Positions 5,926-59,181 of a stretch of 64,000 nucleotides of DNA are shown in pieces. The notes below the pieces were generated by a model. The model saw nothing but the letters and a program-made list of their open reading frames with translations. It was not told the DNA's origin and searched no databases. The position numbers and the translations under genes are program-made. Position 1 is the first letter of the stretch. Each line of letters opens with the position of its first letter. The DNA comes from Perkinsus olseni (lineage: Eukaryota > Perkinsozoa > Perkinsida > Perkinsidae): positions 1 through 64,000 of the forward strand of contig JABANP010000205.1 of NCBI GenBank assembly GCA_013115135.1. Reading direction: 5' to 3'.

Positions 5926-8243
5926 TTACCCAGCGCTTAACAGCACATATGATTTCGATGAGTGGGCGAACTTGATCAAATCGCCTTCTCGCAATTCATA
6001 ATACTTAGCCGCCGGCACTCTCTTCTCGTTCACAAACGTACCTACGTAGAGCACCAGACGCTCATCCGTGAGGTCCCGGGTTCAACCCCAGCATCCTACC
6101 ATTTTTCCCGCCTAAATCCAGCAAGTAAGGCTTAGTAACATCACCGACCAGTCTGAACTGAATCACCGCGTGTTGTCGACTGCACGTGGGATGATCAATC
6201 GGAATGAAGCACAATGGCGCTTCGTCGTTGCCTGAAAAAACTCACTAAGCATCCCGAGTCCACAACGTGAGTAATCGATAGAGCTTCACCCAAAATATCA
6301 AACACACGACTTTGCGCAAAACGGCACTTCACGTAATACCGGTGCAACTCCCGTAAATCAAGATTATCTCAGGATTCTTCAACTTCATTAATGCTCCAAA
6401 CAACTCAAAAGATACGCAGCCCGCCAGCAAACCACAGGGAGTTCCCTCACTCGATTGGTCTAATGCAAACTCAACAGGCGGTTGGCATTCTTCCCTCAGA
6501 CCAAATCGATCATCAGGGCGCGCGCTACTGACGACTTCTCCAAATCTACGCAGAGATGCATCAAATCCGACTCTCAAGGCTTGAGGAATATACGATATTC
6601 CCAACTTTCATTTCCCACGCATCATTTCCAGTGGAGATTTTCCGCGTATTCCAGACTAATCCCGGACCAATTTCGTGGCGCGTGACGCAAACCCATAAGC
6701 ACTACAATCAGTCAACCGCCTATCCTTCCCAAATAGATAACAGGACTTCCTATGAATATGAAGTATCTTATCACCATCGCCATTCTGCGCTTCATCTCGA
6801 TTCTCGTACCTAATTTCCCCCAAATCACAACTCTCTCTCATCTCCCCCGTTGTACTACAATCGCCAGGCATCCGTCGGCATGGCCGCGTCCGCCGGTTGC
6901 GAGAACATCAACGCGATTCCGTTCTTGCTGTTCTGTTCCTCCGCCAACAACCCGGACACCTCAAAGTTCGGCTTCTAAAATAGGAAAAATTTTGAGTCAT
7001 GAAGTCTACCACTCCACGAACGCTTCAATACAATACGCCCAAAAATATGCCGTCCAGTATTCGCGGGGGGGGGGTCTCACAATGAAAGAAACTTCAGTGT
7101 TTTCACTAACTATCGTGAATAGCCATTCAGTAATACTCCGGCACATGTAAACTGATATCACGAAAAGGGTGGAGGAAAATGATCGCGCTCAAAAAAGCGA
7201 GATTGATTAGTTCCCACGACGCTCCATAACCGTCACGGTGCGGCACTCCTCAGATAAAAATATGAATGTCGATCCTCCGTAGAACACGAAAATAATAATC
7301 CGATACCGCACCAACTCGAACTCACGATTCTTTCCCTAGTCAGAATCACGAACGACAATAATCAAAAAAACGTATAATACTTCCTGAATTAAGAAAAAGG
7401 ATCCCATACCACACCATTCCCAACTTATAACCTCTTTCTCCTCTTTCTTCTCTTCCTTCTCTTCTGACTTCTCCCTCTTCGTCCCTCTCAACAAATCCTT
7501 CTTCTCCTCAACTTCCTCATCCTTCCACCCACGACCACCTCGTCGATCCGACGACCCGCGATGGCGATGATACTGAATATTCACACAATGGAGCTTTACC
7601 CGCGATATGAAAAACGCCTTTTCGCATCGCGATGTACGCCGCTCCACGTGTTATGACTGGAACTCCAATGCACGAATAGATCTCAACTCAATCAAGCTTT
7701 GATGAATAATTCTACTTCCCGAGTCGAGTCCTCCTGTCTTCTATTTCGCATCGCGATGTACCCCATTTCACGGCTGAAACTCCGAGTCTCTCTCAACTAA
7801 ATCAAGCTTACATGAGAAACTCTACTCCACGCGTACCCTCTCATTACGACAGTTCGATTCCTTTCAAGCGATGCCGTGGATGTCACCATTGCCTCTCACG
7901 TAAAAGAAGATTCCTGACAACACTGCACCCATACTACTACCCATCACACACCGATACGACTTCCAATCGCAACATAACCGTACAGCATATGTCGAATGTT
8001 TCCTATCGATTATCAGTCAACCTCCCCTTTCAGCCTTCCCCGTCAAATCCGTAAACCCCTCCCGTCCAGTACTACATCGCGATCATCATCCTCCCTTCTT
8101 CTCGATCTCCTCTCATCATCACCGTAGCTCCGCGGTTGCCTCTCATAGCTTCTATGACGATGACGGTCCCCACTTCTACTACGACGACGATGATGTCGAT
8201 GCCTCTCTTCGTCGTCTCTCGATCGACTGCGAGACCTTCCCAT
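5926..8243 (-). CDS. RS-rich FHA-domain protein, SNIP1/DAWDLE-like
   Basis: SNIP1/DDL proteins are nuclear and link spliceosome or small-RNA processing factors through an FHA domain that binds phosphothreonine. The N-terminus (8,243-8,050) is an Arg/Ser domain beginning MGRSRSRSRDDEER; further on (about 7,440-7,570) a Lys/Glu-rich stretch follows. Then come the family-specific pre-FHA motif NFEVSGLLAEEQNSKNG (about 6,960-6,890), IHRKSCYLFGKDRRLTD (about 6,760-6,710), IPIDHPTCSRQHAVIQF (about 6,205-6,150) and the FHA end PYLLDLGGKNG joined over a 58-nt intron to TFVNEKRVPAAKYYELREG. The C-terminus is KSYVLLSAG with TAA at 5,928-5,926, although that stop overlaps a possible donor. Exons between these landmarks are not all resolved. 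Family assignment is strong; exact splice map is partial. Confidence 0.85.
6042..6099 (-). other. 58-nt intron carrying a tRNA T-arm-like hairpin
   Basis: The intron runs from GTAGGATG to CTACGTAG, and its removal restores the FHA reading GGKNG-TFVNEKR. Read on the plus strand it contains GTCCCGGGTTCAACCCCAGC, a T-arm with an RNA polymerase III B box, antisense to the gene. Confidence 0.8.
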
Positions 8244-10728: not shown

Positions 10729-13700
10729 TCATCTAAAATGGTCCATGAAATTAGCCATCCCCACAACCCCCGTCCCCGTCGGGTCGAATCTTCTAAGTAC
10801 CGCCGCCTGCTCGGCTAAGCTGGCTTGCAGTCCATTCTTGTCAAGAGCCGACAGCAGCACGGACGTGTCAATCACCCCAGTGCCCAGTGTATCCAGCTCC
10901 GAAAACCCACTGAAAACAGAAAAACCCCCAATTCATTCCGCGCGCGCCCTCTTAATCGATTCCATCTACAATACCGAATCATGATACTTGCCAAGTACTA
11001 GCTTCAACCAAAGATTCCCCGATATTACATCCTTAGCGAGTCCTCATTGACGATGAGTTCTTGAGCCGCCGAGGCCTCCTCGAACAAAGCCGCGAAGAGC
11101 TTCTCAATCGGACCGCTGAATTTCTCCAACAGGCACACATCCGGCAACCTGACCAAGGCGACTGACCTCCCTCCGAGTTCATATTTTCGTGGCGCGCGAG
11201 AAATCCTCACACCAATAACGGGCAGCTCAGACAGGCACGGCGAGTGAAAAGTACATCCGCCAGAAAACAATTCCACCAATCACAATTCTTGTGCGAGGTT
11301 AATGGAGCAAATAGGTTTCATCAATAAGCAACACGACAACACCGTCCCGCCGTTCACTCACCCTTCAGGATTTTCCATACCAAATTTCTCCCTAATCACA
11401 GCGGCCTTCCTCGCCTCCACTGCTGTCGGCAAAACCATCTCCGCAAACTCCGTAAAATTCAAAGTCCCTTCGTTTGGGTTGTAATAATTCAGCACCACAC
11501 GGCAGTCCGCGATGCTCATCTGAGGATCGATAATTTCGTGGCGCAGTGACGATTTCAACACCTACCCCAAAGCCGATGTGGGCCAAAGCCTGTGACAAAT
11601 CTCTGGCATTAACGAAACCTTTTCCGTCAGTGTCGAACTCCGACCAAAGATTCCCAAAGGAACCGTGGAAAGCCGAGGCGAAGTCGTTCCGGGCCTGAAT
11701 CGATCAACACCAACTCTGAGCCAAATTCAACTTAACCGTCAAAAATTCAAATACACCTTCATCATATAAAAAACAGTTTCTTCGAAATCCTTGAATCTTG
11801 CAATCGATCAACACTTCCGTCGATACCCTCAATCGACCATAACCATCTATGGCGGTTAATCGCCAGACAAACCATGTGCGAAGAACAAATCTCATTACTA
11901 TTCACGAATCTTAGGTTGACCCTTGCAGACTGCGGAAAAACCCACAACACAGCACACATCGGACTGAAATTCCCCTATTTCTGCCTAAAAAGATACTACC
12001 CTATCGATCTTGTTATCCCTTCTTCCCAGATCTCTGACGCTTCTCAGGGTGTAAAGCATTTGTGGGGTTGTGAAGTCGCCAGCCTTCTTCCGCACAGACC
12101 GTCTCGAGCTGGTCGTAGTGTCCCCACTGAAGCTGCGAGCTGTGGGCGAGCCGAACGATTTCCTCGATTCCTGAAGCAAGTGTTGAAATATCTTCCGACA
12201 TTTTCCATAATCGCCTCGCTTCAACCTTGGATACCCCTAGCTACTTCGAGACCCCTCCACATGCTCTTCATCTCCACAGATCGCGAGGCCAAGTTGATTC
12301 TTCCACTCCTGTTTGAGGCCGGTGAACTCACACCAGCCACGACGAAATGATCTCTGAACTCAGCATAGGTAACCTGAAAATAGACTTCGTAAGAAGAAAG
12401 AATCCTTCGGTGAAAAGATGCTGTTTCGGGTGTCATTTTCACTCACTCTTTTACTGATTAAATTTTACGGCATTTTTCCACCTGACGACAATATTTGCGG
12501 GCATGACAATATCGGCGGTCGACCCTGCTCGGAATTCCACCGCACCAATATCTTAGGTTGCACCATGCTAGATACAAATTAGGTCGACATTCGTAGCAAC
12601 TAAGCCCCAAGACCCTCCTCCACTAACCTTAGAGTCACCGTCCCTATCCATCCTAGCAATACAGGCTTCACAGTCGGGACACTTCACGCCAGAACGAAGA
12701 AAAGCTTGACGAATAGACGACACATTGAGGAAGCTGAGCAAAGATACGTCCGCAGTAGCTCCTTTTCACTTGTGAGATATTTACTATCAGAAGCACCACT
12801 ACAGCGACAAACTAAAGTTCACGACTGAGAATATACCACCCTCACCCTCGCCATTAACGAAACGGCCCCGGAGTTCTGCATATTGATTTTTGAAGTCACT
12901 TCGAAAAATTGAACCAGAATTGAGCAAGTTGTCACATAAAATGCTTTTTGAAAACTCACTGTAAACGCTCTCCGACAAGTTCAACGAAATCATCTTCCCA
13001 AATCACCAGTTGACTTCCCCCACCTCCAACCTCCCAGAAAAAAAGTCAAAATGGCAAAGCTCGGCCCCCTCAAAATGGTAGGGCACCCTCAAAGCTCATA
13101 AATGCTTACCGAACTCCAAACGCTACTGAGTTTACTAGAGGCGACCCTCTACCGAATTCCGCATCATTTCGAAAATGGATTCATTAACTCCACCATGCTT
13201 ATCCACCACACTGGTTCGCGAACTCCGAGAATTTCTCAGCGGAATCCACCAGCCCCGAACAGTCCGATAGAGAACTCAGCTACGCTTTCCTAAACCACCC
13301 AGAGCCTCACCCCAGATTGAGAAAGGAGTCCAAGTGGTTGAATGCTTCCGAGATAGAGAAATCCGACCTGGCCAGAAGATACTCTTTTCTTGTGTTCAGC
13401 TCGGTCATGTACTCAGCCTGAGATGGAAGGATCTACGGTAACTACTGTGAATGCAAGTTAACATCGCCACACCCGGGTTCGAACCCCAGCGCCACCCTTT
13501 TCAATACAAATTTTACGGGAGACTAATCGCGATCTCCCACTACTCCTCAACGACCATTCCCTCCAAAGGTAGCGCCGAGAGCACAGAAGAGACGTTGCCA
13601 ATATAAGTACGACCAAGAAATTGAAGCCAGTATTGTGACTGTACAAGTCGTCGCATCTCACCCAGGTTCGAATCCCCGCGCCACCTTTTTACACATTTTT

Positions 13701-15237
13701 TCGACTACCGTAGTACAAAATCATCAATAAGAAATCCTCACCTCCTTCGTCAAGATCCTGCTGAAGCATCGGATGGTCTCGTTGCTGGGACAGTCACTTC
13801 CATTTCCCCGACTTAAAGATTTCTCAATAGCCGCCGAGCTTCGCCAAGGTAAAATCAAACGCAGGAAATCCCTGTAATTCAACTGCCCAAGGGCACTGTG
13901 GTCGTAGTGGCCAATGATACCGTTACCTGAACGAAACAGCGCCGAGATGACCCCGAAAATTTTCCGTCATCTCTGTAATTTCCGCCATTTTTGGTACAGC
14001 AAATACATGTTTCATGTGCACCATCATGATTCGGAAATTCCCCCGTCCCAGTTGCGCTTCCTCAAGTTAGAATTTCGAACCCAACGGGTAGGAAAACGGT
14101 ATTTTCGACAGCACTTTTACCACCATTTTTGTCATGAAAAATTCAGAAAGTACACGCTATACAGAGACCACGCGGAGTCGAACACGATAACGACTTTAAA
14201 AATTCCCAATTCCAGTTGATCTCTCCTAAATCTCGTATCCAGCATTGTTGCCACCATTCTCGGTCCAAGAAAAATCCGCAAGACGCAAGACCGTCCCAAG
14301 GCAATCTGCACGACTGTACGATTGTCTCGCCCTTTAAATACTACTTGCACTGATAGGAAAGTAGTCGGCCGGGTCGTTCCTTTGCACGAACTCCCAGAGG
14401 TCGGTAGAGTCTATAGAACCCTTGGCGTCGGTGTCGAGGTGGGCGAACAACTTGTAGGGGTCGAAATCCGGTGATGAACACAGCATCTCGCGAAAGATGT
14501 CGATCTGAGAACGAACCAGGGGTCACTGAAGCGAGCATGACAACGGAAATTTTAGGTGCTCACTAGGTTTCGACACAACCCCTGAACTAATGGTAACAAC
14601 CATAATGAGGCGCTCTTGTCATCCTATATTGAAACAGACTCGCGAGAATTTATAGCAAATTACTATCCGACTATCAACCGCTGCTAAGCGAGGTTCAACC
14701 CGTGGTCGAGGGCCGCCGTATGAATCATTCCTGCTGCTGCTGCTGACACCCCCTGCAACTCGGCGAATGCTCGTAACCATCAGGAGAAGTGACCGTCTCA
14801 AGTAACGATGATTTGCGATCTACTCGTAGCTTCCCTCAAAACACGCTCCCATAGACCCCTGCAGGGATCCTACCGATACTTTCTGAGCAACTTGAAGCAT
14901 TTAGAAATCTGTCAAGTCTCTTCTATCAACTCCATAACCACTACTAGTGGTGGGAGGTACCCCTACCGCTATCTCAGTGCGGAACTACCGCTCCCTCACC
15001 AGAAAAACAAACTACTACTGTCTGAATACCAGTTACCCCTACTACCTGAACCTCTCGATCAGCAACACAGGCCAAGTACTTCATGATCTGTCCAGTAGTC
15101 GGCACCCCCACGCCCCTCCTAGACGGGCTGCCACCTCTCGAGGACGCCATACTCCTGCTGGCTACACGACGAGACGAAGAGGTGTACTGCTGCTGTCTGA
15201 AGGAGCAGCTGTGGGATCGTGAAAGGGATGTCGCCAT
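10729..15237 (-). CDS. Multi-EF-hand calcium-binding protein
   Basis: A many-exon gene of EF-hand type. A probable Arg/Ser-rich start is MATSLSRSHSCSFRQQQ at 15,237. Helix-loop-helix exons follow: IFREMLCSSPDFDPYKLF with LDTDAKGSIDSTDLWEF (14,510-14,345), LNYRDFLRLILPW (about 13,890-13,760), AFNHLDSFLNLG (about 13,420-13,320), ARMDRDGDSK (about 12,670-12,640), VTYAEFRDHFV (about 12,370-12,330), EFDTDGKGFVNARDLSQAL (about 11,660-11,580), LNYYNPNEGTLNFTEFAEM (11,515-11,440), and FSELDTLGTGVIDTSVLL with RRFDPTGTGVV (10,920-10,750). It ends ANFMDHFR with TGA at 10,731-10,729. Several loops have the DxDxxG pattern and others are degenerate. The pattern resembles alveolate EF-hand proteins with repeated DPYxLFxxLD units. 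Whether this is one gene or two adjacent ones is not settled. Confidence 0.75.
11183..11198 (-). repeat. Introner-like element arm in an EF-hand gene intron
   Basis: In the sense direction the intron before the exon LPDVCLLEKFSGPIEKL carries CGCGCGCCACGAAAAT, a member of the GCGCCACGAAATT family. Confidence 0.65.
11520..11567 (-). other. 46-nt intron containing a GCGCCACGAAATT arm
   Basis: GTAGGTGTTG to ATCCTCAG separates the EF-hand exons ending AHIGFG and starting MSIADCRVV. The intron centre reads GTCACTGCGCCACGAAATTA, the reverse of the shared family consensus. Edges are accurate within a base or two. Confidence 0.75.
13455..13700 (+). repeat. Two tRNA 3'-half-like elements inside one intron
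   Basis: Two direct copies about 190 bp apart: CACACCCGGGTTCGAACCCC (about 13,467-13,500) and TCACCCAGGTTCGAATCCCC (about 13,656-13,700). Each is preceded by a similar TGTGA...CAAGT stretch and followed by GCGCCACC and a T run like a Pol III terminator. They lie antisense within an intron of the EF-hand gene. No 5' tRNA half is present, so they are SINE-like or tRNA fragments rather than tRNA genes. Confidence 0.6.
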
Positions 15238-44644: not shown

Positions 44645-46110
44645 TCATCGTGCGTCCGTAGGTGTGAGACCATGCGACGGAGTTCTACTAGAACTAGCAG
44701 CGCCACACAACGACGACGCTAGGCTCGGCAACGCTAGCTCTTCAATGGTGTCACCGAAGCTCATCTGGATTCCCCCGTGCCAACGCCGCTGGTCGCCACT
44801 ATCTCTAAGACAGGAAACCTCACCACCGTACGATTGATGAAAGACTAACACAACACATCATTCTCCACCATTCCGAATTGTGCCAGAGTCGACCTAAGAT
44901 ACGCTCATGCATTGGCATGTGGATCATCCCTTCACCCCGAAGGAGAACAACGCTCCGCCTTGCACAACCGAGCTAGCTGCTGCTTCGCTCCGCTCAAACT
45001 CCGCCAAATACGGCTCCAGCACAGCAGCATCACCAACACCCTCCCGCAATGACTCGCCAATATTTCCAGTGAGCGAAACGCGTATCTTTCCATGGCTCAC
45101 GTCCGAGCCGTCCAACGAAGCCTCTCGCGACAGCTGCTCCTTCCACTGCGGAGAACTCTCCGTCCATCCAACCGAACCATCATCACGCAGTCCGCCACCC
45201 CAAGAGTTCACACTGCCTCCCACAGAAGCAGCATCGGCCCGTTGAGGTAGCCCGGGCGTAGCGAAACCCGCGGCGCTGATGCTGCTCTCAGGGGTCGTAT
45301 CTTCAACCTTCATGCCAGCTCGCCCTCTATCCAGTACTTCGACAGACTCCTCGTTCTCCTCACTTCGTTGTGGCTTTTTTCGAGGCTTTCGAGTTTCCGA
45401 CCCCGCGACGTCCGAGCCCACCACATACGATGAAGAGGCCCTACTATCGCTCGCCCTTTCCGATGCCTCATACGCTGAGTCCAGCAGCTGCGACGGGCGC
45501 TCTGATCAACAGACAGAACGACTTCGATAGGCTCAGTCCGAAGGAGAGACAAGAAATTTAATGTTAAGCATTGATCAAACACTGTATGTGATGAGCAAAG
45601 AAGGTGTTCATTCTGTAATGAGCCAGCATCAACCTTGGATATGCCGAAAAATCAGCGGGAAATTCTCGCTCGCCCGGCTAAAAAAGTACTACCAAATTTT
45701 CTCCACTCCGCTTCATGTTTAGCTATTACTCTCTCCAGCGTGCTGGCCCTGACCGAGAAGTATCCAGGGTCGACCCTAGGCTACCTTACCGAGCTGCTGA
45801 CTTCCCAACCGGCAAGTCGCTCGATTGTTCACCTGAAACACAGACCGGAGCCACTTGCCCAATCTTGAACACTTGCATTTCCTCAACGACTTACTAGCAC
45901 TCGCCAGGCGTTCCTCCAAAGTCTTTACCATCCATGCTGGCAATGGCCGGCGGGCGTTGGTGTGGAAGTCTCCATTGGCCAAGACACCGTATTCCACTCG
46001 CCTGAGAAAACCTCCTCATGCGCTTCGCTCCGACGATCAGAAAGGGCACGAATTCTCTCCTTGCCGCGCCTCCGCACGACTGCTTCCACTAGCAACTCGA
46101 AAGCTCTACG
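44645..46110 (-). CDS. Unrecognised protein exons, Ser/Glu-rich
   Basis: The minus strand has a long open stretch at 44,924-45,424 rich in Ser, Glu and Gly (SEENEESVEVLDRGRAGMK, SGSVGGSVNS-like runs). Exon-like pieces follow upstream: LPAWMVKTLEERLASASKSL (about 45,950-45,890) and AFELLVEAVVRRRGKERIR (about 46,100-46,040). They probably belong to one gene whose 5' exons are at 46,515-48,722, but I could not prove the joins. No family recognised. Confidence 0.35.
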
Positions 46111-46514: not shown

Positions 46515-48722
46515 CTAGAGCCGCCCTGTCCCTTCCGAGAGTCTTGAGACGCTGCAGGTGGAGGTACTATCGCTGATGCACCGGAAGAACCATTTCGCGC
46601 GCCACGAAATTACCCTAAACTTACATGTCATCGGTATGCGAGTATCCTGACAGTAGGCCTCGATGATCCTCCCAACGGCCTGCCGTATCAAAGCCAGCCT
46701 GTACGGCCGACCGGGCAGCAGCTGCACTTCTTCAGCTGATGTCAACTCGCTATTGGTTATGTCCAGCATGGACCTTTAGGCAGGGGGTAACAACCATTCG
46801 AACGAAAGATATTTTTCCGCACAGCAGAGAATGTGAACTGAGGCAAATGATGCGACATAATTATACCGGTAGAAAATACAACTCCGACGCACGAATAAGA
46901 CCTCCTAGAGTTCCACAAGATTAAGATTCCGCCAGAAATGGTTTTAGCTACAATCGCATTCACAATAGAAAAACAAGGGAAATTGTACCCTTCTTCGCAG
47001 CAGCAGAAGGTTGATACGAAGATTTTGCTCGGAGAAAAAGGAAGACATTTCCAAGCGAACCCTAAGAGCCCAGCCCACTGAATTCACTCGGCGCAGTCGC
47101 GAAGGGTAATTCCAATTGTCATTCCGAAAGTGCGGTGACCACCTCCCTTTAGTACAGATCGTTCCGTCGGTAAGCCACAGCTCGGGCAACATCAGTGCAG
47201 ATTATGTCCACATCATCGCAGGAGACCGTCGGAGAGAGGCAAAACTTCGGATTATTCGCTGAAATGGCACAACGGTCAGGCATCCAGGCTTCCCAGACAG
47301 AGACCCCAGGTTCGATTCCGGCACTGAATCGATATTCAATTTTCGCACAGTACATCCATTCTCATGTACACGCTGCCAACTCAGTAAAGTTCTACCCTGT
47401 AACAGAGTGTTCGTCACATAGCCTCTGCTGCTAAGAAGTTATGGCCTCTAAACCACTTCTCAAATTTGTTTTATTTGATCGGGAAATGGTGTAGTGCGCA
47501 GTCATCACAAGCCTCCATCGTCGATGAAAGACGGTATCCAAAGCGTGTCGCCAAACAGTCCGTCCCCCCACCAGAACAACACCGAAGGCGGAGCTCTCGA
47601 TTTTGAACTACTTCGCAACGAGAAATTCTGACTTTCAGCAGCAGCATACAATCTAGTACCCAAAATTTGACCGCGCGCCACGAAATTCCGACGGTCCCCA
47701 CTTCACCTGGTAAGAACATGAGGACCTCGCACTGCAGCCAGCACTCCCTCGAGAGGCGCAACTTGGCCGACAACTCGCTAGGCGATGTGAGGGAGGTCAG
47801 TACCGTGCCTAGTCCTTCTAGGGCTGATTCACGGCAACAGGAGAACCAAAGGAGCCTGTAGAGATCCACCTGAAAAGAAACTAAAGAAATTAACGGGACG
47901 TCCATTGGGACTTCTCGGGAAAATTCAACCATCGAATTAAGTCAGCCAGGCTTCATTCGCACCGCTGACAACGAGACCAGCTGGACAGTTCTCCGAAAGA
48001 CGACAAATCAGAGAGTAGTAACAACCAAGTGGCGCATGACGAGTAAACGGCAGAGCATTCGGGTGTTGTGTTTTCAATGAGTCGGTCACATCACAAAGTC
48101 GCCAATCAGATGATCTACTGGACAGCCGATGGTCATCTCCCCGAGCCTTCGCTCCCGACCTTCTCCCGATAAAGTCCATTCATCAGGGAAACCCGTCACT
48201 GGTCTCGACAGCGTGCAAGAACTGCAGCTCATTGATAGACTCACAATGGCAACCGAATAGGGCGGTCCACAGCTGCTCCAGCTGACTACTCTTCAGCCCT
48301 GTACCTTTAGGAATGCACGGAAATACCCTCACCAGGGATCGAACCCGGGCCACACCTCTATGGAAGGTAGCGCTCCCGTGAGGCTGCCGTCCTCCACTAA
48401 CAATACTCTTCGCGGAGAGTCTCTCCAGCCACTTTCGAAGTAGGTTCTGCAAGGCCCGCTTATGACGATATAACAGTAGCTGCTCGGCAGATGAGTTCAC
48501 CACCGGAGAGCGATTAGTCATACTCAAAACACCCGCAACATCTCAATAATTACAGTCATGAAAATGCACCTCCCGGGGTTCGAACCGGGGACCTTTTGGT
48601 TCACGACAGTAGACGCCTCCGTACAGGTCTTTCCAACTCCCGGAAGCTCCCTTGGTATAATAAAACGCAACTCCCACTACCCGAACTAAAGGACTGAGGA
48701 AGGCAATAGTTGTTGTCGTCAT
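46515..48722 (-). CDS. Unrecognised multi-exon protein with N-terminal hydrophobic segment
   Basis: The start MTTTTIAFLSPLVRVVGVAF at 48,722 gives a signal peptide or membrane anchor. Two 51-nt introns (48,592-48,542 and 48,355-48,305) join in frame to LLLYRHKRALQNLLRKWLER and GLKSSQLEQLWTALFGCHCE. Later exons: APLGCYYSLICRLSENCPAG (about 48,050-47,960), VDLYRLLWFSCCRESALEGL with LRLSRECWLQCEVLMFLPG (about 47,870-47,710), NNPKFCLSPTVSCDDVDIIC (about 47,258-47,160) and LLPGRPYRLALIRQAVGRII (about 46,730-46,640). The protein is Leu- and Cys-rich and helical, and I recognise no domain. Four of its introns carry either a tRNA-like T-arm or the AATTTCGTGGCGC motif. Confidence 0.45.
46596..46611 (-). 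repeat. AATTTCGTGGCGCGCG element at a donor site
   Basis: In the sense direction it lies 12 nt after a GTAAGTTTAG donor and the intron ends GGTGCATCAG. Member of the inverted-repeat intron family. Confidence 0.7.
47259..47353 (-). other. Likely 95-nt intron made mostly of an antisense tRNA-like sequence
   Basis: The intron ends GTGCCATTTCAG before the exon NNPKFCLSPTVSC. On the plus strand 47,262-47,330 has a box A-like TGGCACAACGG, a CTTCCCA anticodon-like loop and a perfect box B GGTTCGATTCC, like a decayed tRNA-Gly(UCC). The acceptor site coincides with the tRNA 5' region. The donor at 47,353 is inferred. Confidence 0.6.
47672..47687 (-). repeat. AATTTCGTGGCGCGCG element in an intron
   Basis: Sense order: exon end MFLPG, GTGAAGTGGGGACCGTCGG, then the element. 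Same family as 46,596 and 54,562. Confidence 0.7.
48305..48355 (-). other. 51-nt intron with tRNA T-arm hairpin after the donor
   Basis: GTGTGGCCCGGGTTCGATCC begins the intron and TTCCTAAAG ends it. The hairpin CCCGGGTTCGATCCCTGG is a T-arm with a perfect B box in the sense direction. Confidence 0.75.
48542..48592 (-). other. 51-nt intron with tRNA T-arm hairpin at the donor
   Basis: GTCCCCGGTTCGAACCCCGG begins the intron and AATTATTGAG ends it. Removing it joins CREPK to DVAGVLSMTNR in frame. The hairpin starts at the first intron bases. Confidence 0.75.
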
Positions 48723-48824
48723 TGTTAAAACACAGGAAAATTTCGAGATATTTAAGGACCCCACTCGGCAACCTATTCAAATTACGACGAACTCCTTCGG
48801 CGACGATAATGGAACATCAGCGAC

Positions 48825-51800
48825 TTAGTTAACATCAGCGCTGGCCAGCACCGCAGGATACTTCTGCTCAGCCTCGTGGTAAAGTCGGGTCTCCAAGGGC
48901 TCCTGAAAAAAATACATCATCCATCTTGAGGTATTGAAATCTTTCACAAGATGATCCACTTGTCGACATCGAAGCAAAAAGGACGTGAGTTTCCACTGTC
49001 AAACAACATCGTTATACCGGGGCGAAAATATGGTGAAAAATTTCGACCACGGCAGCTGGGACGAGAAGACGGCCCGTCCCGTCACAACTAGCTTTAGTAA
49101 ATCGAAATACGAAATAATAAGAAACGGCTCCTTCACTCTCATAACAGGTGAGGTCGAGGTACAATAGCGCATCTAGAACTCTATCCCATTCTACGGTATA
49201 ACTCATTATCAATTGGAAAGTAGCATAGAATCCCCGGCAACTGACAAGGACTTACGAAAGGCTTGTAAATAGCCCACTTGAAGTTCTTCGCCTGAGAGCA
49301 CTGAACGCCGCTGAGTGTTGCATCGGACACCTGAACGATGGCAATCCGACAAGGCAACACTCGAGCCCGCAGGGCTTACCGGAGCGAAATCTAAGCAGGT
49401 TCGATCGGGACCTCCTCGAATGAAGCCGGCCTCGTTCAACTCCCAAACTTGGTTGGAATTGCTGCCATCTGTATAACAAGTATACCTGATAAAGCAGGAA
49501 TGACGTTAAATTCGACTCACTTGTCGTCAGAGAAAAAATAAATTTCCATATCTACACCTTTTCCCGAGCAAATAAAATGTTTTTTCGTTTGATTTAAAAG
49601 GGCATGGAAAATCGAATTTCATTTTAAAAAAGTTTTGACACGGGTTAAATCGTATTTGCTCATACTATTAATTTGGGTGACAAAACGAATTTGGTTTGAC
49701 AATTTTTTAATTCCAATGACACTCGCTAAATTGCTATCAAAATGGTTTAAACCGAACGAAAAAACATTTTATTTGCTCGGGAAAAGGTGTAGTGTGGTAA
49801 TGTTGAAGAATACTGCAATTCCTTCACAAATTAATCGTTTACGAGACGGCTACTAACCAAATGAGGAGAAAAAAATTTTCGCTACTATAACGAAAAAAAT
49901 CCGTTAGCAAACCCTGGAGGATTTCGAATGGTCAAAAACGAACATGATTCTGTATAAAGGGAGCGCATTCGCGAAGTAATGCCTCGGAGGCAGTGCCTCA
50001 GACCTAAGGTACCACATACAGAAACGAAAAGTCAAATAAACGATTCATATGATAGAACGTTTCCAGCCCGTATCTTACAACTGGGCCTGCTTTCCTCCAC
50101 CAGCGTCCAAACACAGTCCAGATTCTTGGTTCACTAGGCCCTTGAACTTAGCGTACTCCCACTTCTGCGATGAAGCTTCCTCGTCACATTGCGACACCTG
50201 CCGAACCATCCCAAAAAAATTCAACCTCGTGAGAGCTCCCATTTGCAAATCTCGCCGATGAATACCATTCCCGACTTACCGCAAGCCCAGTCTTCTCGCT
50301 CGCGCCCAGACACCAATTGCCGTCCCGAAGGGAAAAGTATTTCCCATCAGCTGAAAGAAACGAAAACAGTCCGACCTTCGTAGTCCGATCTTCGTAGTCC
50401 ATCCTTCGTAGTATTGACATAACCGTTCGCGCGGAAATTTAGGAAATTTCCCATAGCGTTAGATGATGAACAAGCAAGTTGCTTGAAGCAACCCTTGATC
50501 CTGTTCCCACCGAGAAGCTGTTAAGGTCTCCACGAAAATGGCTAGACAACACACAGACAACAGGGCATGATCATCATCTTCATCAATCTCTCCCCGAGAG
50601 CTCTTAAATGCACGGAGGCACCACGAGAAGCTCCTACGCCTTCGGAAGAAGCCCGATGCAGAGGGAGACCCTCCCTCGTTATCTTTTGCAGTAGGTTCTA
50701 GTCTAGCTGCTAGACGTTGTGGTGATCTCCGAACCGTGTGTGGTTATCTGTATACTGATGGAAGTCACAGTACCACACAGTATCTTCTTCAGCTCACCAC
50801 CCTCCATAGACTCGCCTTTGCACAGGCCTAACATGTTGCCTTATTGCGTTAAAAATCACGGGCCGTAGATCCCAAATCGTCACAAATGAAACCCCCCCAT
50901 GCTGCCTTTGTCTCGGGTGAAACTCCGGTTCATCGTTCTCAACAATAGGCTGTACCCTTCCCTCATTTCACCAGCATCCATGAGCCTCGCGACAGAACGA
51001 GCGGGTTTCTCATAAAAGAGTTCAGAAACTTACTTCTCCTGCCTCCCAAACACAATCTCAGCGCAATACCTATGCCGGCAGACTGCCCAGTCTCTCGCTT
51101 ATTTGCAAGTGCAGGCGCTGCTCTTTGTCGACATTACCATATGGTACGAGAAACAGTTAGTGGCAAGTTGCCACTGGCAACATCTTTCTCGCTCGTATCC
51201 CTGCGCTTAGATCAAAGCGAAGAAGGTGGAGGGCAAAGTCGGCGCGCGGGAGAGAACTGCGCCTCGTCGTCGTTGAACAGTACCGGGAAGCTCAAGACAA
51301 TATGATGCAACTGAGTGTTAAACCGGTTGATCAAGATGTTAACGCTGTGGTGCCTCAGGACTCTGCCAGAATCGGCAAATCCAAACAGCGCGCCCCTGCC
51401 AAACATCTGCCGCGGGCCATCGCCTCTAGCTTCTTGACTGATGTTGTTCAGGCGAAGAGCGCGGACCCTAGGCTAGCGTTCCTAGCTGAGAAGTCAATCC
51501 TCATCTCCAACTTTCATGTGAACTCTCGCCAGAAATGCGGAAGTTTTGCCAGCTGAACGGACAAGTCACAAAACCTCGCAGTAGTGGCAGCCACTAAGTG
51601 GCTCACTGCTAGAGAGGGTGCAACTGCTCTCCCCGACCCGGCTGCAGTTACTGCAGTGCAGTCATTTGCTCATTCTTCGATTGTCAAAAACGGAGCATGC
51701 TTCTCGGGCATTCCGGATGAGAGCAGAAATCGACGGGAGAATTCGCAGTTTCCGAACCCGCAATTTCCCGAATCTTCCGGATATTTGAATCAAAGCTGAA

Positions 51801-52229
51801 TCAGTCCTGTGTATGCTCGTACATCGATCTGTTTCTGGACCTCAGCAGGAAAATGTGACATTTAAAATGTCTAACTGAGTCGCTAGCGGCGTTGAACCCG
51901 TGACTCCGTGCTTTTCGTGCTCCGATTCGTGAGTTTTTTCTTGCTATTTTTCCTACATTTCCACAAAAATGGAAATACATCAAGAATATATCAAGGATTT
52001 TCACACTCCTCAGCTCACCAGTAACAGATTCCTTCTTGAATCTTTGACCGTATTTCGTCACGCCATCTTCTGAGATACAACCTTCCAGAACGACCTGAAA
52101 TAAAGTTGTCCAATACATGCGCAGATGGCTAATGACAATGCGTGAGTTGGCCCGCTACCTACCGGTTGAGTCGTCTTCGCTTCGTTCTTAACCGAAAAGC
52201 ATTTTCCCAAATTAGAGCCGCCAGTGAAC
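48825..52229 (-). CDS. Beta-trefoil (ricin B-type) lectin-domain protein
   Basis: Carbohydrate-binding beta-trefoil repeats, recognised by the QxW and CL patterns, are spread over several exons: FTGGSNLGKCFSVKNEAK (about 52,229-52,160), VVLEGCISEDGVTKYGQRF (about 52,095-52,030), ADGKYFSLRDGNWCLGAS (about 50,350-50,280), SQKWEYAKFKGLVNQESGLC (about 50,175-50,110), NQVWELNEAGFIRGG with TCLDF (about 49,470-49,385), LSGVQCSQAKNFKWAIYKPF (about 49,330-49,257), and the end RLYHEAEQKYPAVLASADVN with TAA at 48,827-48,825. I see no catalytic domain. It may be a separate lectin or the rest of a second GalNAc-transferase-like gene; upstream exons beyond 52,229 were not found. A large gap at 50,380-51,950 is treated as intron. 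Confidence 0.6.
51072..51556 (+). CDS. Possible unrecognised exon(s) inside the lectin gene's large intron
   Basis: Plus-strand open stretches read LPRAIASSFLTDVVQAKSAD and RLAFLAEKSILISNFHV, which look protein-like, on the strand opposite to the lectin gene. No recognised family and no clear splice partners. It might be a nested gene or chance. Confidence 0.22.
51884..51915 (-). repeat. tRNA T-arm-like sequence in the lectin gene
   Basis: Sense strand GTCACGGGTTCAACGCCGC: a B-box-like GGTTCAA with a short stem, in non-coding sequence between lectin exons. Confidence 0.5.
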
Positions 52230-52714
52230 CTGAAATCAAACCGGACGTCAAGGGATTCACCACGCCTAATTGTCCCGCCTACCGTATCGCCCCGCCGTTG
52301 ATCTTGTCTTCAAACTTCCAGGCTTGATTGGTATTGTGGTACTGAAAAAGCTAAAGATAGCCTCCACCCGATTACTGCTGCCTCCACAGTACACCTCCGG
52401 TCCGCGCCTTCTACTATTAACCATTTCGCAGTTCCATGGTACCAGTCAGACCAGACCAGTCATGACCAGGGGAGAAACTTCGAAATAGATTAACCGTTCC
52501 GCGCTTATGTAGACATCGGAATCATGTTCCTCGCGCCCCCCGAAAAGACTTGATAAGTTCTGTATCGATCACTGGCTCTATACTCCAATGAGAAAAAAGT
52601 CAACGAAACCAATAATACTAGCGTTCTGGCAGCGCCAATAGGACACTCTCATGGCCATACTCGATAGTGCCAGTTGTATTGGATCACGTACGCGCAATAT
52701 TTTAACACGCCATT

Positions 52715-55700
52715 TCATCGTTTCCTTGCGAGAAGCTCAACGTAGTTGATGAAAGGTGTATCTCCAAGATCCCTTAGAGAAAAATTCCCGCATTCGAATG
52801 ATACAAAACCGTCAGAAGATAGGTTCACCCCGAGTGAATCACCAATGCTGATCACGAATAAACCTACAGTGGCATCGTAGCAGCTATACAATAGTAGCTG
52901 GCTTCCCGAGGCACTATCAGCACAAAGCGTCTGGCCGCCGAGATCGCGTGCCTCGATCCGAGTCTTCCCATCGAAGTCGACAAGAGAGAACTTCTGCTCT
53001 CCTCCAACCTGATCACGGGAGAGAATTGACATCAAGACTTGCACGCATCAACCTAAGATTTTTTGGTCGCCACAAAAATGTACCTTTCCAGTGTCGCTAT
53101 CAATCTCGCATGGCGACAACTCGAATTTGCCGTTCGCTGCAGTAAGGCATTCTCCACTCTGAACCTCCAATATCCCTCCTGTCTTATCATCAACCTAAGA
53201 TACCACCATCGACCGCACAGCAAAGAAGTGCCCCGATCCAACCTTGAAGATTTGCCTAAAGTTCGGATTCTCGCAATCCTCCAACGTCACGTCAGTGCCC
53301 TTCGGTCGCTGCCCGCCAATGCAACCACTGCGGGTCTTCGCATAAGCCCCAGGAGCAATTTGTCTGAGAAATACAGAAAAAATATCTCAACTAGGATTCG
53401 AACCAGGGATCTCTTACAGTTGATGCGTAGCTTCATCCAGCTTAATCCATTGGCTGGTGAAATCTCCCCATGTACTGCAAACTCCCGTATATAATTGGCC
53501 TCCAATAGAGTCAATCGCTAGGCATTGATCAGTGTTCCAATTTCTAACGAAAAACAACATTCGCCGGGATCGAACCCGTGCCTCGGCCTTACCGGAATGA
53601 CGAGCAACATGTGTTAGTAAGAGTATCCCTATTCGCCCCATGCCACAGCTGGCCAGGCGATTGCTCCGAACAAGGCCTCAGTACTACCTTAGTGCCTGGC
53701 AAACTCCGAAATGACCACGATAACTTCGCACACTCCTTTCAACGACCCGCAGATCATTCCTACCCTCCCATAGAGACCTCAAAAACCAGTTTTCACCTCA
53801 GACGGTCAATGCATGAGAGAAAAAGAACGAAGTCTAATTTTGCTCCCACCGAAAAAGAGCGAAAACTTGCTAACAACCCGCTGCAACCTGGCCGGGATTC
53901 GACCACCATCGAGCAGATAAAATATTTTCATAAAATCTGAAAATCACGAAAATTCTTTCCCACAGAAATACCTCTATCTCGCCCACAGAAAGTTCGCGCT
54001 TCCAACCGCTATCACCTCCCTTGCGCTCAATGCACATGTTGGTCCTCTCATCCTTTATGTGGAATACTTTATCGGGTACCAGACCACCGTCGAAATATAC
54101 CTTCTTAAATCTGAAGGCAACCAGCAAGAATGAATCGTTCCTTCATTGCTACCATTCCGGATAATGGCCGCTATTCGTTTCTGATGATGAAATTTTGATT
54201 CATCATAATCATTCATTTACTGAACAGCTTCGGCGAGAACGATGGTAAATCGATTCAGAATGAAAACATATCTATCATTTCCGCCATCACTGCTTCGCTC
54301 GGCACAAGAGCTACAATTTCCCGCCGTTTTCTGATACCGCACCGAAAAATTGCTCATTTTTCCACCACGAGGAACTCTCGCCATGTTGTGAACTAGCCGC
54401 TACCTCACGCATGGAATGCCATAATCACTATTGTTTGCGATGCTTTTCTAATACACGCTTAGGACCCGAGTTATGATCCTAATCGACGGATACGCTAAGC
54501 ATTAGCACTGTGCTGATAGCACAAAGCCCGTGCCGCGAACAGAAGGGGCCAATTGAATTACCGCACGCCACGAAATTACCTCCGCAAGAACCATCCAAAT
54601 GGCTTGCACTTCAGCCTTTCCTTAACCTCCAAGATATTGCCTGATGAACATAAGATATTCTTCGCTGTGCGCAAAAGATATCTTACTGATATCGGGACGG
54701 TCCTTGTACCGTAGTCCGCCCGGCGCGAATTGTGAGAACTCCGGATACGTCTCGAGTTTCTCAAGCCACTCATCGTACCACGCCATAGCAGCACGGTACC
54801 TGATGCATTCGAATTTCGTGGCGCTCTAAAACAATATAAACCGTCACGCGCCACGAAATTACCTGTTGGTAGTGACCGCTCCTCCCGGTACTGTGTACTT
54901 AGCCCTGGTCTTCGGCCGACTGGACAACCTCCACATGTGCGCTACATAGGAATCCTGCGCATTAACCTGAGAATAAATGAAAACAATGACCATACCAAAA
55001 CTTTCGTAACTAATCTCGTGACGATCCAACACCGAGCTCAGCTATGCAAATGCAAAATGGTTAAAATTGCAGCGAAAGCAAAACCGAAAATCTCAGGAGC
55101 CAGTTAAAGTTCACCCACAGTGCGAAAACACATTCCGCATTTTACATAGCCATTTTGAGAAAAAAAACCACGTTGGATTTTGCGTGAGAATCCAGGGGAG
55201 TAGAGTTTCGCCTTTCCCGTTATTACAATCTCCCCGCCACATAACCATATCCGAAGACTTTGATCGATATTCTCTCCGCCCCAGCCGAGCATATTCTCAT
55301 CATACCCTCCTGTCTCATCCCACCACTTCTTAGACATCGCAAGCAGGCCACCGGACATGATCGGAACATACCTGATACATTGGCGTTGAGCAAATGCAAG
55401 AGAGCAAGATTACTACATATCATCCGAGGTGAACCACTTGAAATCAGCATCCCAAGTCAAATAGCACTTGGACATGCCGCCTCCTCCGCGATGCTCCTCC
55501 CAAGTGTCGGGATCGAGATCAGTAATGGACGGCACAACAACTCCTGAATATAGAAAGATGCGGTCAAGAAAACGCAGCGTCATGATACGAGAGCAGCAAA
55601 TTCATCTGCAAGATCAGACGTGAATTTGGAGTTTTCCTGCTGATTCTCTTGAGCGACTTTGAATCAGAAACGGAGATTTTCATACTTGGCCTCCCCATCA

Positions 55701-58267
55701 AAAACATAAACATGAACCTCCCCGTTAGATGCGAGGTTCGACATAAGATATGACGTTACAACCATCAGTAATTGCGCGTCCACGAGCAACCGCAATCTCC
55801 CCTTTCAGACCAACGGAAATGATAGAATTATTGAAACCTCCGTTATTACTCTTATAATTGCTCTTTATGAAATCCACGATCGGTTTATCCCATCCTTCAG
55901 CCGGCTTAACATGGCAGTCCAAGAAGATGATGATATCACCAGTGGCAGCCGCAGCACCTGCGTAACAAGCAAGGTTCAACCTAAGATTCTCTCCCTCAGA
56001 CCATCGCAACAGCGTCACATACACAGCCAATACCTTTGCTCTTGGCGTTGATAAGACCAGTAAAGTGCTCATGACGTACCCAAGTGATTTTTAACCTGAA
56101 AAACAACCAGTAAATTACCGAAAAAACAGAAAGTTACCGCAAAAAACAGTAAATTCCGGTAAAAACTACTCCATGCCCCTTACTTTTCTTGTTGTTCGTC
56201 CGTCAAAAGTGTCTTCAGAGGCGGCGTGCTACCGTCATCAACAACAACCTGACACCATCTAGATCCTCCGACGTATCTTCACCATATAGATCAGAAGAAA
56301 ATCCAAAATCGTAACAACATTGCGTGGTTGACTCGCAAATCTTCTCACTGAGTACCGAAGATGCATTCGCATGTCCTGGGAAACTACGTAAAGATTCTCC
56401 AATAGCATCGTTCCTTCCTAGTAGGAAAAACCGCCGCTAGTTTTCAACCCCTCAGTTTCGCCGTTCGGCATTAAATCGGTGAGCCAGAACAGACACTTCA
56501 CCCCTCGCAGTCCTCGCAAAGCGGGATATCCGAGAATCGCAATATCCCACTATTTTCAATTTAGTACTTCGGATAGGGATGCGCACGCTAAACATTTGAC
56601 CACGTGTCGATCGCGGTACGCTCAGCACTGCCCAGCAACCCGAACTCAGATTCGTACGCACTGATTTATGCTACTTCCGCACTTACAACCTCATGCAGGG
56701 AATACGCCGGTGTGAACTCATTAATTGACTGAGCAGTTTTGACCATAAATTCTCCTTCATTCGCGCAGGGCAGAACCTGACATGACACTAGAATAAATCC
56801 GTCTAATTTCGCGGCCCGACACCGACAGAGCGCCGGAGGATGCGAAATTAAGGTCGTTTGCATCAAAGCTTGCTAAGGCGGAATTCCATACCATTTTTAT
56901 ACTTAAGAGATGGAACTAACCCTCATTCGATACCACATTTTGCGAAACTCATCCGGCTCAGAAATACCAGCAAGCAATTACCACTGGTGATCTTGAAGAA
57001 CCAAAATTTCGAGGTTCGTGCGCTTTACCCGTAGTAAGAATGCTTTCGCTTCTCGCATTAATAAGCTCATGCCCAAGCAGTATCAAACCGTGAAAACGCC
57101 ATTCGGATTTTTACCGCGAGACAAGACCGACCTTCATGCGAGCGAATAACTGACGGATGCGAGTACCATTATGGACTCCCCGCCACCTCCCTCATATTAC
57201 CACACTGATCTTAGGTTGAGCCATGAATCCGCCAGGCAAGGCTCCGCCGGGTTGGGCGAAATCTTCAGGACCTGAGTGAGCGTAGATACCACGTTTTTCG
57301 TTACTCATACATTCCACGACCAAAAAATGAACTACATCGGTGTGAAATAAACTGCAAATAAACTACTTCGGAGTACACGGGCCGACATAAGACGCTGCGG
57401 TGGAATCGCTCAACAAACGCATCCGAAAAACTGCCGATTATAACCAGAGCTCATCGAGATAATTTCCATCGCTCGTACCCCGACAGAAACAAGAAAAACT
57501 TCTCAATCTATTCTATAATTTGGCAAATACAATACCATAAATTCCGATATTCACGCGCCGTCCTTATAACGAAGCCAATCGAACCCGACCGACCGATCGA
57601 AGACCCTGGACTACCTTTCTCCTTTTGCTTCGCTGCACCACCAGCCTGGACCTTCTCATCTCCCCTCAGTTTACCACCAGGCGCCATCATGAAGACAGAT
57701 TTCGCTCTGCTGTCCATCTCTGGGGTGACCATACTGTGGACTACCGCGCAAACTAGCACTTGTATCAGATAAAATGCCTGAGCAGAAATGAGATAGTAGT
57801 CGAAAAGGCTTCGAAACTCCCCGAAAACCCTGAAATTTGCGGTGAATTCGGATCAGCGAGCAGTGAAATTTTCGGAAAATTTTCTGAGTTTTCATTATAA
57901 TTTATCATGATGCCGAGGCTTTCGACCATATCCGAAGATCCGATTGTTCCGCTCATGCTTATTTACTTATGTTTCCATACCACCAAGCTCGCCCCAAGTT
58001 CAACGTGAACTTACAATCAATCGCCAGAGGAAAGGGTATCGAGAAACGCTCGAGCTCCTCGCAAACATCAATGCCAAACAAGCCAGCACCGAAAGCCCCA
58101 AGGAAACGCCTGAGAAGACAAGAAGATTTAAAATGGGAAGGAACTGAAGACACCTTACCTAGCGTTATCCAACCCCATCCGAACAGGAGAATGAGCGGTG
58201 GCATGGCGAACAGAGTCGCGCACCGCACCAGCGTCCTCTTCTTCTGCGAGACGTTGCCTTTGGCCAT
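52715..58267 (-). CDS. Polypeptide N-acetylgalactosaminyltransferase with C-terminal lectin domain
   Basis: A GT27 family Golgi enzyme that starts mucin-type O-glycosylation by adding GalNAc to Ser/Thr. Start MAKGNVSQKKRTLVRCATLF at 58,267 with a membrane segment MPPLILLFGWGWITL, a type II anchor. Catalytic landmarks: VVVDDGSTPPLKTLL (about 56,250), LNLACYAGAAAATGD, IIIFLDCHVKPAEGW with the metal-binding DxH (about 55,930-55,885), VVVPSITDLDPDTWEEH (about 55,540), SGGLLAMSKKWWDETGGYDE and MLGWGGENIDQSLRIWLCGG (about 55,358-55,235), DSYVAHMWRLSSRPKTRAKY (about 54,955-54,895), AWYDEWLEKLETYPEFSQF, and VKERLKCKPFGWFLR (about 54,625-54,585). The lectin half has DERTNMCIERKGG, NTDQCLAIDSIGGQLYTGVC, SQWIKLDEATHQ, VTLEDCENPNFRQIFK, GECLTAANGKFELSPC and TLCADSASGSQLLLYSC, ending VELLARKR with TGA at 52,717-52,715. 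Catalytic residues are intact. Many introns, several with repeated elements. Confidence 0.9.
53364..53417 (-). other. 54-nt intron with tRNA T-arm hairpin
   Basis: GTAAGAGATCCCTGGTTCGA begins it and CTGTATTTCTCAG ends it. It joins DEATHQ to QIAPGAYAK in the lectin domain, in frame. T-arm with B box GGTTCGAATCC, sense direction. Confidence 0.82.
53544..53592 (-). other. 49-nt intron with tRNA T-arm hairpin
   Basis: GTAAGGCCGAGGCACGGGTT begins it and TTTTCGTTAG ends it, before the exon NWNTDQCLAID. The hairpin CGGGTTCGATCCCGGC is a near-perfect T-arm, sense direction. Confidence 0.78.
53881..53971 (-). other. 91-nt intron ending in a tRNA T-arm-like sequence
   Basis: GTATTTCTGTGGG begins it and GGTTGCAG ends it; GGTCGAATCCCGGCCAGG lies just before the acceptor. 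Here the tRNA-like part is at the 3' end rather than at the donor. Confidence 0.65.
54562..54577 (-). repeat. AATTTCGTGGCGTGCG element at a donor site
   Basis: The donor after KPFGWFLR reads GTAATTTCGTGGCGTGCGG, so the element supplies the 5' splice site itself. Confidence 0.75.
54607..54653 (-). other. 46-nt intron with a TAAGATAT inverted repeat
   Basis: The intron begins GTAAGATATCTTTTGCGC and ends ATATCTTATGTTCATCAG; its removal joins RPDIS to NILEVKERLKC, the expected GalNAc-transferase sequence. TAAGATAT and ATATCTTA form terminal inverted repeats. Ends given to within about 15 bases (donor near 54,690, acceptor near 54,645 by alternative counting). Confidence 0.5.
54800..54862 (-). 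other. 63-nt intron with full terminal inverted repeats
   Basis: It begins GTAATTTCGTGGCGCGTGAC and ends ATTCGAATGCATCAG. Arms AATTTCGTGGCGC (54,860-54,848 in sense order) and GCGCCACGAAATT (54,824-54,812) are exact inverse copies. Removal joins TTNR to YRAAMAWYDEW in frame. This is the clearest introner-like intron in the window. Confidence 0.9.
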
Positions 58268-59040: not shown

Positions 59041-59049
59041 GGAGAATTC

Positions 59050-59137
59050 CGGGCCTAGGATTCGAACCAAGCGTCTCGCATGCGCTAGCTGTTTCGTTGG
59101 GCTATGCCCGCGAGGGTTCGAATCCCCCAGGTGTCGT
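59050..59137. pseudogene. Two tRNA 3' halves in opposite orientation
   Basis: On the minus strand 59,050-59,088 matches the 3' half of an Ala-type tRNA (GCATGCGAGACGC then TTGGTTCGAATCCTAGGC). Directly beside it on the plus strand, 59,094-59,135 is the 3' half of the Ser-like tRNA found at 59,557 (CGTTGGGCTATGCCCGCGAG). Neither has a 5' half. Confidence 0.65.
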
Positions 59138-59181
59138 GTTTGCATCGTGGGCAGAAGGAACGTCGACAGAATTTGAAGGAA

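What the first reader, a model, noticed from the sequence alone, without database searches (positions are those of the whole stretch)
48305..53971. Short introns built around a tRNA T-arm (B-box) hairpin
Several short introns carry a T-arm hairpin with a good RNA polymerase III B box, often starting at the donor: 48,305-48,355 (51 nt), 48,542-48,592 (51 nt), 53,364-53,417 (54 nt), 53,544-53,592 (49 nt), 53,881-53,971 (91 nt, hairpin at acceptor). Further cases are 6,042-6,099 (58 nt, antisense), 47,259-47,353 (antisense, near full tRNA), two copies in the 13.4-13.7 kb intron, and 51,884-51,915. Splicing these out restores recognised proteins (FHA, lectin domain). Ten such hairpins in introns is far above what chance B boxes would give. 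I propose that tRNA fragments or tRNA-derived SINEs became introns here (a tRNA-type introner). I know of no described intron family with this design.
Basis: partly seen in the sequence, partly recalled or inferred. Interest (0 to 1): 0.92.

Follow-up and report, generated by a model that had tools for sequence, protein, structure and literature searches.

The report
tRNA-like elements inside short introns
In a marine single-celled parasite of the genus Perkinsus, some of the very short introns are made largely of a worn piece of tRNA-like sequence, which suggests that tRNA-derived mobile elements have been turned into introns.

Summary
The core observation holds and extends beyond the window. 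The host is a Perkinsus species. A 34-nt module, AGGTCCCGGGTTCGATCCCCGG-n5-GCATTTT (variable loop, T arm, acceptor strand, A73, T-run of a tRNA), is dispersed: GGTTCGANNCC occurs 4458 times against 602 reversed; with CATTT at tRNA spacing, 502 against 1. A gene finder blind to the module puts 33 of 85 modules in introns of at most 120 nt: 0.99/kb, against 0.08 in exons and 0.25 in intergenic DNA. Protein homology supports splicing of three reader introns and of 10 of 15 other junctions. Both orientations occur; the T-run side tends to lie at a splice site. Reader errors: 53,881-53,971 is not its own intron, 51,884-51,915 holds no module, 48,305 and 48,542 have no gene support. Stem pairs do not covary, so a sequence rather than a hairpin is kept. 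Best reading: old, mostly 5'-shortened tRNA-derived retroposons that became introns. Insertion itself is not shown: no target-site duplication, no empty allele. Other short repeat families share these introns.

The parts
53364..53417 (-). 54-nt intron of the GalNAc-transferase/ricin-lectin gene, T-arm module sense at 53379-53412
   Evidence: P0001 alignment runs on across it; predicted exactly by the blind gene finder; present in the C599 copy with the core intact
53544..53592 (-). 49-nt intron of the same gene, T-arm module sense at 53551-53584
   Evidence: P0001 exons end at 53592 and resume at 53545; the gene finder has the acceptor right but the donor at 53763; identical in the C599 copy
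6042..6099 (-). 58-nt intron of an FHA gene with the module antisense (6071-6104, the last 5 nt in the exon)
   Evidence: predicted exactly; Pfam FHA match spans the junction; the rest of the intron reads like an anticodon arm (by eye)
13418..13741 (-). predicted long intron with two modules, 13468-13501 and 13657-13690, antisense to the gene
   Evidence: intron not tested by homology
48320..48353 (-). T-arm module, A-box-like sequence 55 nt upstream of the core
   Evidence: score 31.6, labelled intergenic; A box; ARAGORN calls the place tRNA-???
48561..48594 (-). T-arm module with the highest score in the window
   Evidence: score 39.7, labelled intergenic
47301..47334 (+). T-arm module of a nearly complete tRNA-like sequence (A-box-like motif 45 nt upstream of the core)
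   Evidence: score 15.2, labelled intergenic; A box; no tRNA family hit
59043..59076 (-). T-arm module next to tRNA genes
   Evidence: score 20.6, labelled intergenic
59107..59140 (+). T-arm module next to tRNA genes
   Evidence: score 17.9, labelled intergenic
48825..58267 (-). host gene of the two introns: polypeptide N-acetylgalactosaminyltransferase-like protein with ricin-type lectin repeats
   Evidence: P. chesapeaki and P. marinus orthologues, exon map by tblastn; my gene finder splits it in two, 48825-50834 and 52058-58267

Best explanation
The module is the 3' part of old tRNA-derived retroposons (SINE-like, RNA polymerase III type, with B box, discriminator A and T-run) scattered through a Perkinsus genome. 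Copies that landed in genes in either orientation survive where they are spliced out, and they make up most of the intron that removes them. In sense copies the T-run lies in the polypyrimidine stretch and the acceptor AG follows 2-15 nt later in 17 of 25; a donor lies in or upstream of the variable-loop or anticodon region. In antisense copies the T-run end lies within 5 nt of the 5' splice site in 9 of 12. Shown: tRNA-like module, genome-wide dispersal, enrichment in short introns, splicing by homology, nearness of the T-run side to a splice site. Inferred: retroposition, intron creation on insertion, 5' truncation as the reason for the missing tRNA body.
For: Counts: GGTTCGANNCC 4458 against 602 reversed; with N9-CATTT 502 against 1. 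Blind gene finder, strict pattern: 34 in 86.0 kb of introns, 8 in 120.5 kb of exons, 18 in 107.5 kb of intergenic DNA, 12 in tRNA genes; the control patterns with enough hits lean to no intron excess, the strict ones had 1-2 hits each. PWM modules: 33 of 85 in 599 short introns, 15 in longer predicted introns, 10 in exons, 27 intergenic; short intron against exon odds 11.9, P 2e-14, against intergenic 3.9, P 3e-7. In the 114 kb not chosen by B-box hits: 6 in 131 short introns (0.79/kb), 6 in longer ones, 0 in 38.4 kb of exons, 12 in 50.0 kb intergenic (0.24/kb). Homology: gapless alignment at 10 of 15 junctions, five sense and five antisense, plus three in the window. T-run side nearer the splice site in 28 of 37 introns, P 8e-5; the 12 antisense ones alone P 0.006. 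Without gene models: strong acceptor just after the T-run in 31 of 83 against 11-17 elsewhere, GTRRG just 5' in 12 of 83 against 2-5. Module introns have a median of 55 nt against 49 for the others, so a 34-nt module was not simply added to a normal intron. A-box-like motif upstream in 10 of 83 (controls 6, 1 and 4), five of the ten at 44-45 nt, the spacing in a tRNA. Longer antisense introns read on into D-arm-like and anticodon-arm-like letters (by eye).
Against: No direct repeats at splice sites (2.06 against 1.99 permuted, sd 0.08) or around modules (4.49 against 4.48). No presence/absence difference in the six modules with a readable second copy. Few near-identical copies: five DNA queries with 26 modules gave one module with near-identical sites elsewhere, two tandem ones on C79, at the sensitivity of that search. 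No tRNA-model hit at the modules; only three 13-nt matches to the tmRNA model at E 3.4. The core is far better kept (sites with 0, 1, 2 mismatches: 60, 105, 763 against 2, 61, 795 reversed) than the flanks, which plain neutral decay of one family does not give. Without gene models, donor and acceptor signals for the antisense orientation are not enriched beside the modules (donor GTRRG 7 of 83 against 6-10 elsewhere; looser donor 28 against 14-25; acceptor 12 against 8-15). Gene models are mine, without RNA data, and may favour acceptors after a T-run.
Confidence: 0.57

Rival explanations
1. Ordinary tRNA-derived SINE copies inserted into introns that already existed; selection for introns near 50 nt then deleted the old intron body and most of the element.
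For: Modules also occur in intergenic DNA at 0.24-0.26/kb; several other repeat families lie in the same kind of intron; no target-site duplication, as for old insertions.
Against: Module introns are only 6 nt longer at the median; the T-run side lies near a splice site in both orientations; short introns are about four times denser than intergenic DNA.
Confidence: 0.25
2. The B box is kept for function: TFIIIC or polymerase III sites in introns (like extra TFIIIC sites), and the rest of the tRNA has drifted.
For: Core much better conserved than flanks; T-stem pairing not kept.
Against: Variable loop, discriminator A and T-run are also kept at tRNA spacing; the C149 copy of one AP-2 alpha module has two substitutions inside the core; the nearness to splice sites would be unexplained.
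Confidence: 0.11
3. Recent copies of many real tRNA genes or 3' tRNA fragments.
For: The acceptor strand differs from copy to copy, and T-arm subtypes show weak linkage (93 distinct of the first 100 listed of 502: pairs alike at 8 or more of 9 positions 15 against 5.7 shuffled, maximum 13; the list may hold tRNA genes and haplotype copies).
Against: Real tRNA stems would pair; the three outer pairs form in about half of 83 modules, no more than columns predict. No anticodon-loop signal upstream among 118 sites.
Confidence: 0.05
4. Chance B boxes or an artefact of wrong gene models.
For: No transcript data; three reader cases have no gene support.
Against: Genome-wide excess and spacing; homology-supported junctions; acceptor and donor signals without gene models in the sense orientation.
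Confidence: 0.02

Closest known systems
Introners (PMC9860276: term passages and section 7 read)
   Same: A dispersed element family makes up introns in many genes of an aquatic protist; splice sites may come from the element or from the target; family median lengths of 30-654 nt are reported there. That paper also says that some introner families may be RNA-propagated.
   Different: Most families there are called consistent with DNA transposons (49 of 130 with TSD, 72 of 177 with TIR). Here: tRNA module with T-run, no TIR or TSD signal, strongly diverged copies, both orientations. The terms SINE, tRNA and Perkinsus do not occur in its main text.
tRNA-derived SINEs (recalled)
   Same: B box, sometimes an A-box-like motif at tRNA spacing, T-run end, dispersed, 5' part often missing.
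   Different: No body beyond the tRNA region found, no TSD, partner LINE not looked for; many copies reduced to about 34 nt.
Repeated introns of Amoebophrya (PMC7789003: term passages read)
   Same: Parasitic relative of dinoflagellates with repeat-derived introns.
   Different: Those carry inverted and direct repeats and non-canonical splice sites; the gene finder here models GT-AG only, and modules have no flanking repeats.
Extra TFIIIC (ETC) sites (recalled; only a search listing, PMC4226948, seen)
   Same: B boxes outside tRNA genes.
   Different: Here tied to splice sites, variable loop and T-run.

Membership tests
Introner | Similar sequences form introns in many unrelated genes | tested here: met
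   33 of 599 short introns; homology-supported in AP-2 alpha, eIF4E, adenylosuccinate synthase, GTP cyclohydrolase I, a PP5-like phosphatase, phosphonopyruvate decarboxylase, the lectin gene and an FHA gene
Introner | Insertion creates the intron (empty orthologous site or allele) | tested here: inconclusive
   Only six modules in two genes with a readable second copy; present in both
Introner | Density in genes above random expectation | tested here: met
   Short introns against intergenic 3.9-fold, P 3e-7; exons are depleted
Introner | TSD or TIR (many but not all families) | tested here: not met
   not obligatory, as PMC9860276 reports families without them
tRNA-derived SINE | Internal B box and A box at tRNA spacing | tested here: inconclusive
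   B box met by construction; A-box-like motif in 10 of 83, five at 44-45 nt
tRNA-derived SINE | Target-site duplications | tested here: not met
   No flanking direct repeats above shuffled pairs
tRNA-derived SINE | 3' tail shared with a partner LINE | not tested
   No LINE was looked for
Functional tRNA gene | Cloverleaf recognised by the tRNA model | tested here: not met
   No tRNA-family hit at E up to 10 at modules in the window or in seven loci; three 13-nt tmRNA-model matches at E 3.4; ARAGORN calls one module tRNA-???
ETC / TFIIIC site | TFIIIC bound, no polymerase III | not testable with these tools
   No binding data

The most novel reading that the evidence does not exclude
A polymerase III, tRNA-derived class of introner: RNA-mediated, 5'-truncated retroposons whose terminator T-run doubles as the polypyrimidine tract, and which seeded a measurable part of the introns of Perkinsus in both orientations, next to several other equally short introner families.
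Probability: 0.45. Interest if true: 0.85.

Novelty: new variant of a known kind. Interest (0 to 1): 0.72.

Why it matters
How spliceosomal introns arise in bulk is a long-standing question. The introner families in the main source I could read are mostly called DNA-transposon-like, with RNA-propagated ones only suggested. A tRNA-derived family would show that RNA-copied, polymerase III elements can do it too, and that a transcription terminator can be reused as a splice signal. It also makes direct predictions for other Perkinsus genomes (public ones for P. marinus, P. chesapeaki and P. olseni are recalled, not checked here).

Tried and rejected
Hairpin conservation: rejected, no pair covariation. 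Complement of the acceptor strand upstream: none to speak of (4.98 against 4.88, sd 0.07). Target-site duplication and inverted flanks: none. Branch-point motif: no clear one in 488 non-module introns of at most 75 nt. GTRAG within 14 nt 5' of the core genome-wide: 252 of 4458, only about twice my rough chance estimate, and probably including tRNA genes. Recent copies as a sign of activity: one of 26 modules in five queries. Decayed modules in the other introns: at score 0 or more 28 sense and 23 antisense against 10.2 shuffled, of 599; the second half of that script failed. A PWM iterated from palindromic seeds drifted to a palindrome and was dropped, replaced by strand-resolved seeds. Before counts, known tRNA genes were masked; two modules near a locus end were left out where flanks were needed (83 of 85). 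Loci L001-L020 were picked near B-box hits, so densities are inflated there; the unpicked part is given apart.
Full report
Setting. The window is part of contig C119 of an unnamed 61.5-Mb assembly of 968 contigs. The gene at 48.8-58.3 kb is a GalNAc-transferase with ricin-type lectin repeats whose best relatives are from Perkinsus chesapeaki (79% over my imperfect model) and P. marinus (54%).

Check of the observation. ARAGORN and Rfam find real tRNA genes in the window but no tRNA at the reported introns, apart from one ARAGORN tRNA-??? over the 48.3-kb module. Tblastn of the P. chesapeaki protein gives the exon borders at 53,364-53,417 and 53,544-53,592: the protein runs on, and the introns hold GTAAG, the T-arm sequence, a T-rich stretch and CAG or TAG. 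The claimed intron 53,881-53,971 is part of one intron of about 317 nt. The sites at 48.3 and 48.5 kb lie past the end of this gene, and no gene was predicted there. The 6.0-kb intron is predicted exactly, and the FHA domain spans its junction.

Is it more than chance? Genome-wide GGTTCGANNCC occurs 2301+2157 times, the reversed pattern 282+320. Adding CATTT nine bases on, the place of the last acceptor base, discriminator A and T-run, leaves 256+246 against 0+1. So it is not a B box alone but the 3' part of a tRNA. The logo runs from the variable loop (AGGTC) to the T-run; further upstream there is no general conservation.

Introns. As no annotation exists, I trained a gene finder on 314 kb from its own long open frames, without knowledge of the module. 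It settled at 793 introns, the commonest lengths 43-56 nt, donors AG/GTRRG and acceptors YAG. The module occurs in introns of at most 120 nt at 0.99/kb, in exons at 0.08/kb and in intergenic DNA at 0.25/kb (33, 10 and 27 of 85; 15 more in longer predicted introns). In the 114 kb that I had not picked by B-box hits the figures are 0.79, 0 and 0.24. Six conserved proteins were compared with solved homologues; of 15 module junctions inside the queries, 10 are crossed by a gapless stretch of the alignment, four lie outside it, at its edge or in a loose part, and one lies beside a gap.

Anatomy. Of the ten supported junctions five carry the module sense and five antisense; in the window two are sense and one antisense. 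[quoted passage not shown] in 12 antisense introns the T-run end lies a median 0.5 nt from the 5' splice site and the other side 18 nt from the acceptor. So the common 3' end of the element lies near an intron end in both orientations and the 5' side varies. Without gene models, acceptor and donor signals beside the module are enriched for the sense orientation, but not for the antisense one. Some longer introns and some intergenic copies reach an A-box-like motif at the spacing of a tRNA. This looks like retroposons with a fixed 3' end and a variable 5' end, but no target-site duplication remains.

What is conserved. The three outer T-stem pairs are broken in about half the copies with no covariation, so RNA structure is not kept. 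Core mismatches are few (0, 1, 2 mismatches: 60, 105, 763 sites against 2, 61, 795 in reversed sequence), flank mismatches many. Either many source subfamilies shared only the promoter box, for which there is weak linkage evidence, or the box is selected. Between two copies of AP-2 alpha one module has lost its core by two changes, which speaks against strict selection; only six modules could be compared.

Age. The lectin gene has a 93%-identical second copy on C599, and AP-2 alpha has copies on C149 and C767. I call these haplotype-like, but they may be paralogues. The module introns are in the second copies that I could read: two of the lectin gene and four of AP-2 alpha on C149; the C767 sequence held did not cover them in one alignment. 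The elements are therefore mostly old.

Literature. I searched the open library for Perkinsus with introner (one paper, Amoebophrya), tRNA-derived with SINE, intron gain and spliceosomal (one), introner with SINE and tRNA (three), introners with tRNA-derived (none) and Perkinsus with short interspersed (two, which look unrelated from their titles), and in five further searches. I read passages of PMC9860276, PMC7789003 and PMC11453091 and one section of the first. Nothing I saw describes a tRNA-derived introner. Most subscription papers are not held; the 2023 dinoflagellate introner paper cited in PMC11453091 was not read.

Verdict. A real, genome-wide link between tRNA-derived elements and introns that I found nowhere described; introner-like in what it does, not proven by insertion.

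Noticed in passing
L017:6139-6198, 8743-8797, 9153-9210, 9290-9338; L002, L003, L004, L022 introns: A second short intron repeat, CGGAGCGAAG core, in both orientations: 16 in short introns (0.48/kb), 4 in exons, 3 intergenic; the 13-mer GGCGGAGCGAAGC occurs 727 times genome-wide against 0 reversed.
   Followed up: partly
window:11520-11565, 46601, 47677, 54811, 54850; L004:6117-6167; L017:2216-2262: A third repeat, CCACGAAATT core, both orientations: 18 in predicted introns (7 in short ones), 1 exon, 7 intergenic; CGCGCCACGAAATT occurs 1217 times genome-wide against 1 reversed.
   Followed up: partly
L004:6811-6859 and L032; window:55372-55416, 45833-45894: Intron family built of CAATCTTGC / GCAAGATTG repeats; the L004 intron has a 91% match over 43 nt on C141 in what looks by eye like an intron of another gene.
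   Followed up: partly
L017:8026-8074, L003:7991-8039, window:53189 and 53047: Further short motifs concentrated in introns: TCTTAGGTTGA, GACACCTCTA, ATACCAC[TA]CC, CACAGCGAAGA. With the T arm and the families above, 72 of 599 short introns carry at least one.
   Followed up: partly
C120, C149, C767 (L028-L030); C119 and C599 (L026, L027); C451 and C467: Some genes exist in two or three copies mostly 93-97% identical (80-96% for C451 and C467), as in a diverged diploid, hybrid or polyploid assembly; L005, L004 and L017 queries gave no such copy.
   Followed up: partly
L022:2292-2478: A repeat of about 125-187 bp, matched at some 40 listed places, lies in the AP-2 alpha region, and a 73-bp part is absent from the C149 copy: a polymorphic insertion or deletion.
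   Followed up: no
window:657-1702: Seven tandem tRNA-Arg(TCG) genes about 162 bp apart, with a long open frame on the other strand.
   Followed up: no
L033:1388-1560: Two tandem T-arm modules 109 bp apart, each between inverted arms like GAGAGCAA / TTGCTCTC (by eye).
   Followed up: no
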